Below are positions 21,998-28,837 of a stretch of DNA of 51,061 nucleotides, piece after piece (position 1 is the first letter of the stretch; each line of letters starts with the position of its first letter). The notes beneath the pieces were generated by a model. It saw only the letters and a program-made list of their open reading frames with translations, searched no databases and was not told the DNA's origin. Made by a program: the position numbers and the translations under genes. Origin of the DNA: Mycobacteriaceae bacterium (GTDB lineage: Bacteria; Actinomycetota; Actinomycetes; Mycobacteriales; Mycobacteriaceae); NCBI GenBank assembly GCA_028726465.1, contig JAQYQB010000023.1, positions 1 to 51,061 on the forward strand, given 5' to 3'.

Positions 21998-22030
21998 GTC
22001 ATTCCTGCGCTACCACCAGCGCGCGCCCGC

Positions 22031-22336
22031 CTAGTAGCGCAGGTGCTCCGGGCGCTGGTAGCCGAACCACTTGCCGGCGGCGTCCCGCATGGAATCCGCC
22101 ATCTTCGAGAACGGATAGGGCTCCGCGCCCGCGTCCACGACGGCCTTGACCACCGCGTCGCGCACCAGCCAGACATCCGCCGGGTCGCAGGCCGCAGTCA
22201 CGTTCAACGCCGCCGCAAAGCGCCCATCCGGCAAACCGGTCAGGGCCTGCAGCGCCGGCTCATCGATGCCCGCCCGCCGCAGGTTCTCCGCAATCTCCGC
22301 CGCAGCGGCCTGGCGTTCTTTGTTATTCAGACTCAT
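22031..22336 (-). CDS. DUF2316 family protein
   Basis: 101 aa starting MSLNNKERQ. The pattern fits DUF2316: N-terminal helices AEIAENLRRAGIDEPALQALTGLPDGRFAAAL look like a helix-turn-helix, followed by CDPADVWLVRDAVVKAVVDAG and EPYPFSKMADSMRDAAGKWFGYQ. Start 22336 has TACTCT 7 nt upstream and no Shine-Dalgarno sequence (leaderless). It is divergent from the restriction-modification gene with 100 nt between starts, so it could act as its controller; that is inference only. Confidence 0.75.
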   Translation of the reverse strand: MSLNNKERQAAAAEIAENLRRAGIDEPALQALTGLPDGRFAAALNVTAACDPADVWLVRDAVVKAVVDAGAEPYPFSKMADSMRDAAGKWFGYQRPEHLRY

Positions 22337-22409
22337 GGGAGAAAGAGTACTCCGGTTTAGAGGACTCCATTCCCTATCGAGCCGAGTCTCGAGTGTTTGC
22401 CCGACATGG

Positions 22410-22429
22410 TCGGCATACTTCGGCATACT
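22410..22429. promoter_or_regulatory. Tandem TCGGCATACT repeat before the restriction-modification gene
   Basis: TCGGCATACT occurs twice in direct tandem (20 nt). The second copy ends in CATACT, a plausible -10 box 7 nt before the ATG 22437 (leaderless). The repeat may be an operator for the divergent pair. Confidence 0.5.
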
Positions 22430-22436
22430 GTTAGAT

Positions 22437-25400
22437 ATGTCGTCGTTTGCTGATTCCGTCAAAGCCCTGCGTGATCTCCCCTCGGACGCCAAAGCGGGCC
22501 TCGCCTTCGAAAAGCTCATGGTCAACTACTTCACCGTCGACCCCGTTCTATCGAAGACCTACAAAAACGTCGCCCGCTTCAACGACTCCCCCCTTCTTTA
22601 ACGGCAAACCCGAAACAGGCATCGACCTGGTAGCCCAACGCGTCGATGACGACTCCTGGGCCGCGATCCAGTGCAAGTTCTACAGACCAACCACCACCCT
22701 GGCCAAAGGCAACCTCGACTCGTTCTTCGAGGCCTCGGGGCATACCTTCGACATCGACGGGGAGACGGTCGAATTCAAGCAGCGCATCATCATCGCTACC
22801 ACCGACAAGTGGAGTAAGAACGCCGAGGAGATGCTCAACGACCAGTCCATTCCTGTCTCGCGTATCGGTTTGTCAGACATCGCCGAATCCGAGATCAACT
22901 GGGACATCGCTTTCCCCGGCTCCGAGGTCACCATCAACCTCACCCGCCGACAGACCTTTGAGCCCCGACCTCACCAGATCGAAGCCATCGATGAATGCAT
23001 GGCCGGCTTTGCCACCCGCGACCGCGGCCAGCTGATCATGGCCTGCGGCACCGGAAAGACGTTCACCTCTCTGCGCCTAGCCGAGAAATTCGCGCGCGAA
23101 AACGGCGGACGCGCACGCGTGCTCTTCTTGGTTCCCTCGATCAGTCTTTTGTCCCAGTCCCTGCGCGGCTGGCACTCCCAGGCAGAGTTAGACCTTCGCA
23201 CTTTCGCGGTCTGTTCCGATAAGAAGGTCTCCCGCGACGCCGAAGACATCGCCACCTATGACCTCGAAGTCCCCGTGACCACCGACGGCAAAGTACTCGC
23301 CGAGGAACTCTCCCACCGAAAGCGCGCGGCAGGTCTGACGGTAGTCTTCTCCACCTACCAGTCCCTTCCCTCCGTCCACGACGCTCAAGCTGCCGGTGCC
23401 GATGACTTCGACCTGGTCATCTGCGATGAGGCCCACCGCACCACCGGGGTGACCTTGGACGGTGTGGACGCGTCGAACTTCGTTCGAATCCACGACGCCG
23501 ATTACATCAAAGCCCAGAAGCGGCTGTACATGACCGCCACCCCGAAGCTCTTCGACGATACGGTCAAGGGCAAGGCCGAAGAATACTCCGCCGAAATTGC
23601 CTCGATGGACGACGAGGCCGTCTTCGGCCCCGAATTCCACCGCCTCGGCTTCGGTGAAGCAGTCGAGCGCGGGCTTCTAACCGACTACAAGGTCGTGGTC
23701 ATGACCGTCGACGAGAAACTCGCCGCCGACGCGATGGCCAAGGTAACCATGGCTGAGGGATCCGAGATCACTCTCAACCTGGCAAGCGCCATGATCGGCA
23801 CGTGGAACGCGCTAGCCAAGCGCTCCGGTGACGAGCAGGACACCCGCTCCGGATTCTCCTCGAACGAGACCCCTATGCGGCGCACGGTCGCCTTCGCCAA
23901 GGACATCAAGACCTCCACTCGCATCGCCGAAATCTTTCCCCGGATTGTCGGCGCCTACACCGAGACGATGCGCTCGAAGGCAGTCGCCAATCCGCATGTC
24001 AGCCTGCACAACATTGACCTGACTGTCTCGTCGCGCCATGTCGACGGATCGATGAACGCGCTGAAGCGTAACAACCTTCTGACCTGGCTGAAAGCACCTA
24101 CCGGCGAAGAAGAATCGAAGCTTCTGTCCAATGCACGCTGCTTGGCCGAAGGCGTCGACGTGCCGGCGCTGGATGCGATCGTATTCTTCAACCCGCGCAA
24201 CTCCATGGTCGATGTCGTTCAGTCCGTCGGCCGTGTCATGCGTAAGTCCGAGGGCAAGGACTACGGCTACATCATCCTGCCTGTCGCCGTGCCGGCGGGC
24301 GCTTCCCCGTCGCAGGTACTCGACCACAACCAGCGCTTCAAAGTTGTCTGGCAGATCCTCAACGCCCTTCGTGCCCACGACGACCGGTTCAATGCAAAGG
24401 TCAACTCCATCAAACTCAACGAGGGCGACCCGGAGCTTCCCATCGTTGTCGATCCAGTCGTCGACCCTGACAAGGCCCTCGAGGAGAAAAAGCGTAAGGC
24501 CGAGGAGAAAGCCCGGCTTGCCGCGGAAGGCGACCACACCGACGACAAGTCGCCCGCGGACGAGTCGGACCTGGCTCAGCAGGTGCTGTTCTCCTTGGAG
24601 GAGTGGCAGGAGGCGATGTACACCAAGCTCGTCGACAAGGTCGGCGACCGCACCTACTGGGCGGACTGGGCCGACGACGTCGCCGACATCGCCCACGCTC
24701 AAACCGCACGCATCAACGCGCTTCTCGCCGACGCCAACCCGAAGCTGAAAAAGGAATTCGATCGCTTCGTCGAGGGGCTGCGCGGCAACCTCAACGAGTC
24801 GATCACCGCGGAAGAAGCGGTCAACATGCTCTCTCAGCACCTGATCACCGCCCCAGTGTTCAACGCGCTGTTCACCGAGGTCGAGTTCGCCGATCAGAAC
24901 CCGGTTTCCAAGGTCATGCAGACTATGGTCGACGCGCTTAACGACAAGCAGCTGGACAGCGAGACCGAGAAACTCGAAGGTTTCTACGAGTCGGTGCGCA
25001 AACGCGCCGGCGAGGTGACTTCGGCCTCCGGCAAGCAGCAGGTCGTCAAGGACCTCTACCAGCGCTTCTTCCAGAAGGCGTTCAAGAAGCAGTCCGAATC
25101 ACTCGGCATCGTCTACACCCCGGTCGAAATCGTCGACTACATACTTCGTGCCGCCGACGAGATCCTCAAAGCCCACTTCGGCAAGGGCCTGACCGACAAA
25201 GGCGTGCACATCCTCGACCCGTTTACCGGTACCGGCACGTTCATCGTGCGGCTAATCCAGTCCGGGTTAATCAAACCGGAGGATCTCGCGCGCAAGTACG
25301 CGACCGAGTTGCACGCCACGGAAATCATGCTGCTGGCCTACTACGTCGCTGCGGTCAACATCGAGACAACCTACAACGCCCTAGCGACCGAAGCCGCACA

Positions 25401-27468
25401 ACGCGAGAATCGTGAGGCTCCCGCCTATGTGCCGTTCGCGGGGATCGCTCTGGCGGACACGTTCCAGATCAGCGAGGAGGATGACACGCTGGATCTTGAG
25501 GTCTTCAAGGACAACAACGAGCGTATCCAACGTCAGCAGGACGCCCCGATCCACGTGGTGGTCGGTAACCCGCCGTACTCGGTCGGGCAGAGTAACGCGA
25601 ACGACCTCAACGCGAATCTGAAGTACCCGACACTCGACAGTCGAATCCGCGAAACCTATGCCAAGCTTTCCACCGGAGGCCGCAAAGCGCAGCTCTACGA
25701 CTCCTATATGCGAGCATTCCGGTGGGCGACCGACCGTATCGGGGACAAGGGTGTGGTCGCCTTCGTGTCCAACGGCGGATGGATCGACGGCAACACCGCA
25801 GACGGGGTACGGCTGTCCTTCACTGAGGACTTCAACGAGGTCCACGTATTCAACCTGCGCGGAAACATGAGGAATGCGAACTGGCGCGAGGAAGGCGGCC
25901 AAATCTTCAAAGGCGGCTCCCAGACCACGGTCGCGATCACCATCGGGGTCAAGGACCCGCAGGCGACCGGCTGCAGGATCTTCTACCGGGACATCGGTGA
26001 CTACCTGAGCACCGAGGAGAAGCTCGACATCGTCGACCATGCCGCCACCGCACTGGCCGACGATGCCGAATCCCACGGATGGTGGGCCATCACCCCGAAC
26101 AAATACGGAGACTGGGTGTCTCAGCGCCACGAAGAGTTCGAGACGTGGCCAGTCCTCGGATCCAAGAAGCCCGCGGAAGGCACGCCGATTTTCGGTAGAC
26201 ACTCCCTAGGCCTTGCGACTGCACGAGACGCGTGGTGCTACGGGCCTAATAGATCGAAATTGTTAAACAATATCGATCTTTTAGCTACCGCTTACAACCA
26301 AGCCCGAAATGACTTCCACGACTGGGCGGCGTCTGCGGGGCTTCAGAAGCTTACGGAGCGAGTCGTTGACGAGTTCCTCAATGAAAATCCTCAGTACACA
26401 GATCGATCGAAGATCTCCTGGGACAGCAACCTGAAGTCTAACTGCGCGCGTAACAAGAGCATTTCAGTATCTGCTCCATCCATCCAAAAGAGTTTGTACC
26501 GCCCGTTCACTAAGCAGAACGTCTACTACGACACCCATCTGAACCAACGCATTTACCAACTCCCACGGTTGTTCCCCACCCCGTACCACAAGAACATCGG
26601 CTACTACGTAGTCAACCCTGGTTCGGCCAAGCCGTTCAGCACCATCGCCACCAATCTCCTTCCGGATCTCGCGATGTGGGGGTCGAATGCTGGCCAGTTC
26701 TTCTCGCGCTTCACCTGGCAACCCGTCGACGCGCCCGAAGGCGAACTCAACCTCGACATGAATACCACCACCGAAGCCGAGGCGAGCGTCTACGGACAGA
26801 TCGGCGAGGTCGTCGACGGCTACCGACGCGTTGACAACATCACCGACGAGATCAAGACGATCTACCGGGACAGTCTCGGATCTGACGTCACCGGCGACGA
26901 CATCTTCCACTTTGTCTACGCCGTGCTGCACTCCCCCGACTACCGGGAGACGTACAAGACAGACCTGAAGAAGATGCTGCCTCACATCGAGACCCCCGCC
27001 GACCGGGACTTCTTCGACGCCTACGTCTCCGCCGGCAAGGAACTTCTCGACCTCCACGTCAACTACGAGGACGTCGAGCCCTGGCCCGTCGACGTGCAAC
27101 TCAAGAAGAACGCCGACCCCGACGACCCAGATACCTGGAAGGTCACCAAGCCGAAGTGGGCTAAGACCACCGACCCGGAGACCGGCAAGAAGGTCAACGA
27201 CACCACCCGGATGATCTACAACCCCAAGATCACCATCGCCGATATCCCCGCCGAGGCCGAGCGCTACCAGCTCGGCTCCCGCTCGGCGCTAGCGTGGATC
27301 ATCGACCGCTACCAGATTAAGAAGGACAAGGCCTCCGGCATCGTCAATGACCCGAACGACCTCGCTGCTGAAGCCGGGAACCCGCGCTACATCGTGGATC
27401 TGGTTGCCAAGGTCACTCGTGTCGCTATGGAGACGAACCGTATTGTCGACAATCTGCCTCAGCCGTAA
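22437..27468 (+). CDS. Single-chain (type ISP-like) restriction-modification enzyme, frameshifted near the 5' end
   Basis: An intact gene would give about 1676 aa from ATG 22437 (MSSFADSVKALRDLP). One extra C in a C6 tract (22588-22593) shifts the frame, and that reading stops at 22601 after 54 codons; the rest is open to 27468. Domains: Mrr-like PD-(D/E)xK nuclease (GIDLVA ... WAAIQCKFY, near 22620-22685); SF2 helicase/translocase (ACGTGKT near 23045, DEAH near 23425, YMTATPK, SVGRVMRKSEGK); helical coupler; N6-adenine methyltransferase (YTPVEIVDYIL, LDPFTGTGTF near 25215, NPPY near 25568); C-terminal target recognition domain (about 26100-27400). This is the LlaGI/LlaBIII plan: nuclease, translocase, methylase and specificity in one chain. 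Codon use at 26200-26520 is more AT-rich, as variable recognition domains often are. Confidence 0.88.
22588..22593 (+). repeat. C6 homopolymer at the frameshift
   Basis: GACT followed by six C then TTCTTTAAC. With five C the reading frame TCC CCC TTC TTT AAC GGC joins both parts of the gene; with six, a TAA follows at 22599-22601. It is a candidate slip site or a sequencing error. Confidence 0.85.
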
Positions 27469-27700
27469 AACAACGCAGCGCAGGCACGCTCCCTAAAGAG
27501 CACTCCTCAGTGGTCGTGACTGACTGGGGACTTACGGGTGTGGTTCTGGCACACCGCGTACACCGCGGTAAGAAGTTGCGGGTGTAACTGAGGCCTAGCC
27601 GGTTAACCCCGCCGCGCACATTATCGTTTACACCACAGTCTCCCTTCGGTAGGCTCCACATCACATTGTGGTTTCGTGGACGCGAGGAAAGGACGCTGTG

Positions 27701-28837
27701 ATGGTGGAGGCGGCAAAGCGCCGGGTTGGGTACGTGTGGGACACGCTTTATGGCTGGGTGGATACCGGCACCGGCGGGATGGAGGCCGCGGACCCGGCGC
27801 GGGGCCTGCAGCCTATTTCCCACCACGTCGCGCACGCGGATACTAAGCGCCGCTTCCACGAGCTGGTGCAGGTCAGCGCCTTGCGCGAGCACTTGACGCC
27901 GCTGCAGGCGCGGTACGCGAGCGAGGACGAGCTTGCGCGGGTACACACCCGCGAGCACATCGCGGAGATGAAGCGGCAGTCGCAGCTGCTGCGCGGGGGC
28001 GATGCCGGCGACGACGCCAGCCCGTTCGGCCGGGGCGGGTTCGACATCGCGCGCCTGGCCGCCGGCGGGGCGATCCGCACGGTGGAGGCCGTGGTCACCG
28101 GCGAGGTGGATACGGCCTACGGGCTGGTCAACCCGCCGGGCCATCACGCCGAGCGCGCCCGCGGCATGGGCTTTTGCCTGTTCGGCAACGCCTCCGTGGC
28201 GATTGCGCACGCGCGTGAAGTGCACGGGGTTCAGCGCGTGGCGGTGGTGGACTGGGACGTCCACCACGGCAACGGCACCCAGGATATCTGGTGGGACAAC
28301 CCGGAGGTGCTGACCATCTCCATCCACCAGCACAACAGCTTCCCGCCGCGCTCCGGGCACCGGGAGCACAACGGCACCGGCGCAGGTAAGGGCGCGGCGC
28401 TGAATATTCCCTTGCCGCCGGGCAGCGGCAACGCGGTCTACGACCTGGCTTTTGCGGACGTCGTGGTGCCTGCGCTCGAGCGCTTTAACCCCGAGCTCAT
28501 CGTGGTGGCCAGCGGCTTCGACGCCGCCGTCATGGATCCGTTGGCGCAGATGATGGTCACCCAGCGCGGCTTCAAGGCGCTTACCCGCCGGCTTTTAGCG
28601 GCTGCCGATGCCCTCTGCGGCGGCCGGATCGCCTTCCTCCAGGAGGGCGGCTACAGCCCGTACTACCTGCCCGTCTGCGGGCTGGGGGTCATCGAGGAGC
28701 TGACCGGCCGCGAGTCCGGCTTCGGGGACCCGCACGCGGCGAACCTGGACACCAAGGGCGTGGACGATCTCTACGATCACCAGCGCGCCGAGGTCGCCCG
28801 CGCCGCAGCGCTCGTCGAGCAGGTGCCGGCCGGCTAG
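27701..28837 (+). CDS. Class II histone deacetylase-like hydrolase
   Basis: 378 aa; GAGGAAAGGA about 8 nt before ATG 27701. HDAC/acetylpolyamine amidohydrolase fold: NPPGHHAERARGMGFCLFGNASVA holds the catalytic His pair, DWDVHHGNGTQDIW the zinc Asp and His, and GFDAAVMDPLAQM the second zinc Asp, and LQEGGYSPYYLP completes the site. It removes acetyl or similar acyl groups from amines (lysine, polyamines or small amides). No partner genes are adjacent; the 230 nt upstream from the restriction-modification gene hold only its promoter region. The substrate is unknown. Confidence 0.9.
   Translation: MVEAAKRRVGYVWDTLYGWVDTGTGGMEAADPARGLQPISHHVAHADTKRRFHELVQVSALREHLTPLQARYASEDELARVHTREHIAEMKRQSQLLRGGDAGDDASPFGRGGFDIARLAAGGAIRTVEAVVTGEVDTAYGLVNPPGHHAERARGMGFCLFGNASVAIAHAREVHGVQRVAVVDWDVHHGNGTQDIWWDNPEVLTISIHQHNSFPPRSGHREHNGTGAGKGAALNIPLPPGSGNAVYDLAFADVVVPALERFNPELIVVASGFDAAVMDPLAQMMVTQRGFKALTRRLLAAADALCGGRIAFLQEGGYSPYYLPVCGLGVIEELTGRESGFGDPHAANLDTKGVDDLYDHQRAEVARAAALVEQVPAG

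What the first reader, a model, noticed from the sequence alone, without database searches (positions are those of the whole stretch)
22437..22601. Frameshift in a C6 tract splits a type ISP-like restriction-modification enzyme
The correct N-terminus (MSSFADSVKALRDLP..., 54 codons) and the 4.9-kb remainder are joined only if the C run at 22588-22593 has five rather than six C. The break falls before the nuclease catalytic residues (GIDLVA ... QCK). Options are phase-variable restriction by slippage, a recent knockout, or a sequencing error. Six C is short for a contingency locus, but reversible loss would let cells accept DNA.
Basis: seen in the sequence. Interest (0 to 1): 0.72.

Follow-up and report, generated by a model that had tools for sequence, protein, structure and literature searches.

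The report
Frame-broken single-polypeptide restriction gene
A large one-protein restriction-modification gene in an unnamed Corynebacterium is broken near its start by a frame change at a run of six C; this looks like an ordinary gene loss rather than a genetic switch, but related species do carry what look like length-variable switches inside the same gene.

Summary
ATG 22437 opens 54 codons ending at TAA 22599-22601; a C6 run sits at 22588-22593; the remaining ~4.87 kb is open in the +1 frame. The 54-aa piece is the N-terminus of a Type ISP (LlaBIII-like) enzyme: 48 of 49 non-identical homologues read through this stretch in one frame. Best explanation: a recent loss-of-function frameshift in a probably horizontally acquired, dispensable gene; sequencing error is the main rival. 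Against a switch at this site: only six C; none of the 49 has a tract here; the held genome (2.19 Mb, 90% complete) has no G/C run of nine or more; a Trp kept in 62 of 62 intact homologues is also lost beside the run. Sister genome G191 lacks the gene. The unexpected result lies in relatives: 12 of 79 full-length homologues are frame-broken and carry a G/C tract of 7-14. In four related genes (89-94% nt identity) the only frame-changing indels lie at one poly-C tract (9, 10, 11, 14), with dN/dS 0.04-0.14 on both sides. Phase-variable Type ISP enzymes therefore probably exist in this genus, but probably not here.

The parts
22410..22436 (+). Upstream region: tandem TCGGCATACT TCGGCATACT (22410-22429); CATACT could be a -10 box placed for a leaderless transcript starting at the ATG
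   Evidence: Sequence; no Shine-Dalgarno-like motif found upstream of the ATG; the promoter reading is inference
22437..22601 (+). 5' piece: 54 codons plus TAA, the Type ISP N-terminus
   Evidence: homology to N-termini of Corynebacterium homologues
22588..22593 (+). C6 run where the reading frame changes
   Evidence: only homopolymer of six or more in the gene
22594..27468 (+). 3' piece in the +1 frame (open from 22447): nuclease, helicase, coupler, methyltransferase and specificity domains
   Evidence: Pfam Mrr_cat_2, ResIII, Helicase_C, ISP_coupler, N6_Mtase, Type_ISP_C; LlaGI and LlaBIII in PDB; PADLOC REase_MTase_IIG best, REase_MTase_I second
22034..22339 (-). Upstream neighbour, DUF2316 protein
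27701..28837 (+). Downstream neighbour, histone-deacetylase-like (acuC-like) gene; its 5' end is missing together with the ISP gene in sister G191
   Evidence: Pfam Hist_deacetyl

Best explanation
A Type ISP restriction-modification gene, probably acquired horizontally, has recently lost function in this lineage by a frame change at a C run near codon 51. Translation from ATG 22437 gives only a 54-residue peptide that ends before the nuclease signature. Because nuclease, translocase, methyltransferase and specificity parts share one polypeptide, a single break should remove cutting and protection together and so be harmless to the cell. Shown: the break in the assembled sequence, the homology of both pieces, the absence of other breaks downstream, and absence of the gene in the sister genome. 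Inferred: that the base is real, that the break is recent, that the gene is dispensable, and that no product is made from the 3' piece.
For: 48 of 49 homologues read through this stretch in one frame. The 3' piece has no further stop or frame break and a mid-range root-to-tip distance (0.694; range 0.333-0.862 over 63 tips). The Trp column (62 of 62) is lost at the same spot. Sister G191 (90-95% nt identity in the aligned blocks) lacks window 22388-27893, including the first 226 bases of the acuC ORF, which suggests deletion; its acuC also shows a candidate frame change at a G6 run, and no Type ISP gene was found elsewhere in it (best match E 2.3e-5). ISP G+C is 59.8% against 67.0% in both flanks. 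None of the 6 candidate frame switches in G000 (in 5 of 118 ORFs compared with G191) has a run of six or more at the junction, so there is no sign of systematic homopolymer error. Precedent: five independent inactivations of a 1541-aa restriction gene in Propionibacterium acnes, with two frameshifts (PMC4746626, passages read).
Against: No reads and no second strain of this species were available, so an error in this one place cannot be excluded. The 137 kb of aligned coding DNA of this genome holds 165 G/C runs of five and none of six, so a C6 in a gene is itself unusual here, as an error would be. Base substitutions beside the run mean the history is more than one slip. The 3' piece departs from 14 of 516 near-invariant columns, more than 58 of 62 intact homologues; those nearest in mean identity have 15, 10, 6 and 15 (just below) and 6, 5 and 7 (just above). 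This may mean somewhat relaxed constraint for longer than 'recent' implies.
Confidence: 0.55

Rival explanations
1. Sequencing or assembly error: the gene is intact in the organism and the frame change is an artefact.
For: The break coincides with the only homopolymer of six or more in the gene; the rest of the 4.9 kb is open; the genome is a draft, 32 contigs and 90.1% complete; no G/C run of six occurs in 137 kb of aligned coding DNA of this genome.
Against: None of 6 candidate frame switches in 118 ORFs compared with G191 lies at a run of six or more; the loss of an otherwise invariant Trp by substitution beside the run is not a homopolymer error.
Confidence: 0.28
2. Phase variation: slow reversible slippage of the C run switches the enzyme on and off.
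For: Type ISP genes of other Corynebacterium species carry long G/C tracts at or near the frame break, with lengths that differ between related species; 184 of 242 genomes of the genus have a G/C run of ten or more.
Against: Only six C; none of 49 homologues has a tract at this position; the held genome has no G/C run of nine or more; exactly-six G/C runs sit in frame in 12 of 62 intact homologues.
Confidence: 0.1
3. A product is still made: +1 ribosomal slippage at CCC-C, or an internal start giving a methyltransferase-specificity fragment without nuclease.
For: The zero frame reads TCC CCC CTT CTT TAA, where a P-site CCC could re-pair one base on (mechanism recalled). ATG 24616, residue 724 of the ORF, lies just before the coupler domain with an AGGAG motif upstream. 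In H. pylori the 3' fragment HP0669 of a broken Type ISP gene is an active methyltransferase when overexpressed in E. coli (PMC3936762, passages read).
Against: The slippery sequence is absent from all 49 homologue segments shown; the AGGAG motif has poor spacing (12 by the script) and lies inside coding sequence; no expression data.
Confidence: 0.07

Closest known systems
LlaGI / LlaBIII, Type ISP restriction-modification enzymes (PDB 5ffj, 4xqk)
   Same: Same domains in the same order and similarity over most of the 3' piece; the N-terminal piece matches through intact homologues, one of which (L009) aligns to the LlaBIII N-terminus.
   Different: Here the reading frame is broken before the nuclease signature.
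HpyAXVIII, HP0667-HP0668-HP0669 of Helicobacter pylori (PMC3936762, passages read)
   Same: A Type ISP gene silenced by frameshifts that the authors say are not due to sequence repeats.
   Different: Two frameshifts there, and the 3' fragment was shown to be an active methyltransferase; no activity data here, and here the break is at a C6 run.
Inactivated restriction gene of Propionibacterium (Cutibacterium) acnes (PMC4746626, passages and section 17 read)
   Same: A large (1541 aa) restriction polypeptide of an actinobacterium lost repeatedly, with two frameshifts among five events.
   Different: The paper calls it a type II restriction enzyme; its membership of Type ISP was not tested here.
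Phase-variable Type IIG enzyme of Campylobacter jejuni NCTC11168 (PMC4889913, search listing and start of abstract only)
   Same: A restriction-modification enzyme whose phase variation changes methylation.
   Different: Not compared by sequence here; the window has only a six-base run and no shown variation.

Membership tests
Type ISP restriction-modification enzyme | Mrr-type nuclease, SF2 helicase, coupler, N6-adenine methyltransferase and Type ISP specificity domains in that order | tested here: met
   Pfam matches in order over the 3' piece; N-terminus supplied by the 5' piece
Type ISP restriction-modification enzyme | One continuous polypeptide | tested here: not met
   As assembled, the frame breaks at 22588-22601: a broken relative, not a working member
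Type ISP restriction-modification enzyme | ATP-dependent cutting and methylation activity | not testable with these tools
   Needs biochemistry or modification calling
Phase-variable contingency locus | Long tract (about eight or more repeats; threshold recalled, compare 'long (>8 bp)' in PMC3936762) at the frame break | tested here: not met
   Run of six, longest in the gene
Phase-variable contingency locus | Run length varies between isolates or within a clone | not testable with these tools
   No second isolate and no reads; nearest homologue 68% identical
Phase-variable contingency locus | Tract kept at this position in relatives | tested here: not met
   None of 49 homologue segments has it
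Phase-variable contingency locus | Other long tracts in the genome | tested here: not met
   No G/C run of nine or more in the 2.19 Mb held, 90.1% complete

The most novel reading that the evidence does not exclude
Type ISP enzymes of Corynebacterium are a widespread class of phase-variable defence genes in which long G/C tracts have arisen repeatedly at different sites (near residues 216, 320, 553, 660-690, 990, 1120, 1548) and switch the whole single-chain enzyme on and off; the window's C6 would then be a young or worn-down tract at a further site. The probability given is for the whole statement including the window; for the relatives alone I would put it near 0.7.
Probability: 0.1. Interest if true: 0.7.

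Novelty: new member of a known kind. Interest (0 to 1): 0.4.

Why it matters
For the window itself, it illustrates how a one-chain restriction-modification enzyme could be lost safely in one step, since cutting and protection should vanish together. For the genus, the comparison exposed what look like length-variable switches in Type ISP genes of other species. The eight literature searches made here, in the held open-access library only and judged mostly from listings, showed no report of repeat-driven switching of Type ISP enzymes in Corynebacterium.

Tried and rejected
Phase variation at the window's C6: not the leading reading. Whole-gene decay: no other stops or frame breaks and ordinary branch depth, but departures at near-invariant columns are on the high side (14 of 516, more than 58 of 62 intact homologues), so mild relaxation is not excluded. 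Systematic homopolymer error in the assembly: no sign, though the test used crude stop-to-stop ORFs: 5 of 118 ORFs with candidate switches in G000 and 9 of 112 in G191, some at contig ends or in upstream extensions that may not be genes; only part of each genome was compared (394,237 bases of G000 with the window, 841,262 of G191). Relatives in viral contigs: none confirmed. Plasmids: 869 records match, 6 in the 60-80% identity band and the rest lower. A 15-C pattern in the own genome gave no match and was repeated with nine C. The Trp lost here is not universal in the wider family: the alignment of L009 to LlaBIII has another residue there. Literature: papers that hold both 'type ISP' and 'phase variation' were listed; only PMC3936762 was looked into (passages), the other seven were seen as listings only.

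Full report
What is there. The window is contig C23 of a 2.19-Mb, 32-contig, 90.1% complete genome. Its genus is Corynebacterium, judged from the named records of its nearest homologues. ATG 22437 opens 54 codons ending at TAA 22599-22601. A C6 run lies at 22588-22593, and the +1 frame is open from 22447 to 27468. The 3' piece carries, in order, Mrr_cat_2, ResIII, Helicase_C, ISP_coupler, N6_Mtase and Type_ISP_C, and its best solved relatives are LlaGI and LlaBIII. It is the only such gene found in the genome; the second match is a short, weak one over the helicase part.

Is the break real at the protein level? Yes, in the assembled sequence. The 54-aa piece matches Corynebacterium homologue N-termini at 40-60% identity, and 48 of 49 non-identical homologue segments are open in one frame through the stretch (these 49 are the loci among L003-L118 with an N-terminal match at E 1e-4 or better). 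The stretch around the run differs from homologues by more than run length: a Trp present in 62 of 62 intact homologues is absent, the one departure among 10 near-invariant columns in the 5' piece. In the alignment of homologue L009 to LlaBIII, LlaBIII does not have that Trp either, so its loss need not abolish function.

How old is the break? The 3' piece has no further stop or frame change and a mid-range root-to-tip distance. Against a very recent date, it departs from 14 of 516 near-invariant columns, more than 58 of 62 intact homologues, although homologues close to it in mean identity range from 5 to 15. The break is therefore recent, or not real, with mild earlier relaxation possible. 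The nearest homologue is only 68% identical, so selection on this branch cannot be measured directly.

The sister genome. G191 is 90-95% identical over the shared blocks and joins window 22387 directly to 27894, so it lacks the ISP gene and the first 226 bases of the acuC ORF; it has no better Type ISP match elsewhere than E 2.3e-5. The nine other relatives with acuC matches at E 1e-70 or better start at bases 47-70 of that ORF, so a deletion in G191 is more likely than an insertion here; this is inference. G191's acuC also shows a candidate frame change at a G6 run. The ISP gene has 59.8% G+C against 67.0% on both sides, which suggests horizontal origin.

Error or not? In 118 ORFs compared with G191, five in G000 showed a candidate frame switch (six events), none at a run of six or more. 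The 137 kb of aligned G000 coding DNA holds 165 G/C runs of five and none of six. There is no sign of general homopolymer error, but the same figure makes a C6 inside a gene unusual in this genome, and one wrong base cannot be excluded.

Switch or not? Six is short, none of 49 homologues has a tract here, 17 exactly-six G/C runs sit in frame in 12 of 62 intact homologues, and the held genome has no G/C run of nine or more, whereas 184 of 242 genomes of the genus, the own one counted among the 242, have one of ten or more. I judge phase variation here unlikely.

What relatives show. Of 242 genomes of the genus 120 have some match to the ORF; the longer matches were fetched, not every fragment. 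Of 103 non-redundant homologue loci, six overlapping or fragment rows were dropped before the census. Of the remaining 97, 13 were fragments or contig ends and 5 had long inserts. Of the 79 full-length genes, 59 were intact without a G/C tract of seven or more, 3 intact with one, 12 frame-broken with one somewhere in the gene, 1 frame-broken without, and 4 had a nonsense codon (one of these also has C10). In one search, 10 of 12 inspected junctions had a G/C tract of seven or more within 60 bases of the break. In the 62 intact genes G/C runs of six or more are fewer than in synonymous shuffles (20 against a mean of 63.1), but runs of nine or more are in excess (3 against 0.0 in 20 shuffles). 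Four genes at 89-94% nucleotide identity (L009, L120, L121, L122) have frame-changing indels relative to each other only at one poly-C tract, of length 10 (in frame), 14, 11 and 9 (out of frame); the pair L120/L122 has none because both are out by the same step, and L120 also has base changes just after its tract. Both sides of the tract are under purifying selection, dN/dS 0.036-0.144, also between out-of-frame copies. That is what reversible switching predicts; a functional split into two proteins would predict it too. Other tract groups are less clean: pairs such as L124/L125 and L013/L157 also show further non-triplet indels in the divergent 3' part. Cautions: one genome per species, long tracts are hard to sequence (L119 has a run of N between two copies of its tract), and in P. 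acnes variable tracts follow clades and were read as slow accumulation rather than active modification (PMC4746626, abstract passage and section 17 read).

Prior knowledge. Type ISP genes broken by frameshifts not due to repeats are known in H. pylori, where a 3' fragment still methylates (PMC3936762, passages read). Repeated inactivation of a large restriction gene is known in P. acnes. None of eight literature searches listed a paper that, from its title and abstract start, is about repeat-driven switching of Type ISP enzymes in Corynebacterium; only the held open-access library was searched and most listed papers were not opened.

Verdict. Probably an ordinary and fairly recent loss of a Type ISP gene, or a sequencing error in it; of modest interest by itself, raised by the genus-level tracts it led to.

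Noticed in passing
L009, L120, L121, L122 (also L053, L119), poly-C near residue 990: Type ISP genes of related species whose only frame-changing differences (first four) lie at one poly-C tract (9, 10, 11, 14), with purifying selection on both sides: likely phase-variable enzymes.
   Followed up: partly
L013/L129, L157, L065/L130, L045, L124, L125, L126, L080, L128, L079: Long G or C tracts at other positions of the Type ISP gene (near residues 216-223, 320, 553, 660-690, 1120, 1548): seven of these ten genes are frame-broken at or near the tract, three (L157, L045, L079) are in frame there.
   Followed up: partly
window 22388-27893 against L149:10497: Sister G191 lacks the ISP gene and the 5' end of acuC, lacks window 22011-22160 as well, and its acuC has a candidate frame change at a G6 run; the region appears to be eroding there.
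   Followed up: partly
window 22410-22429: Tandem ten-base repeat TCGGCATACT directly upstream of the start codon, with a possible -10 box placed for a leaderless transcript.
   Followed up: no
L137 and L138 (G089): A Type ISP gene apparently split into two parts about 27 kb apart on the same strand, as if by a large insertion.
   Followed up: no
genus-wide: G/C runs of ten or more occur in 184 of 242 genomes of the genus, a few with very high counts (G067, G076; overlapping matches counted), while G191 has none of ten or more and the window's genome none of nine or more.
   Followed up: no
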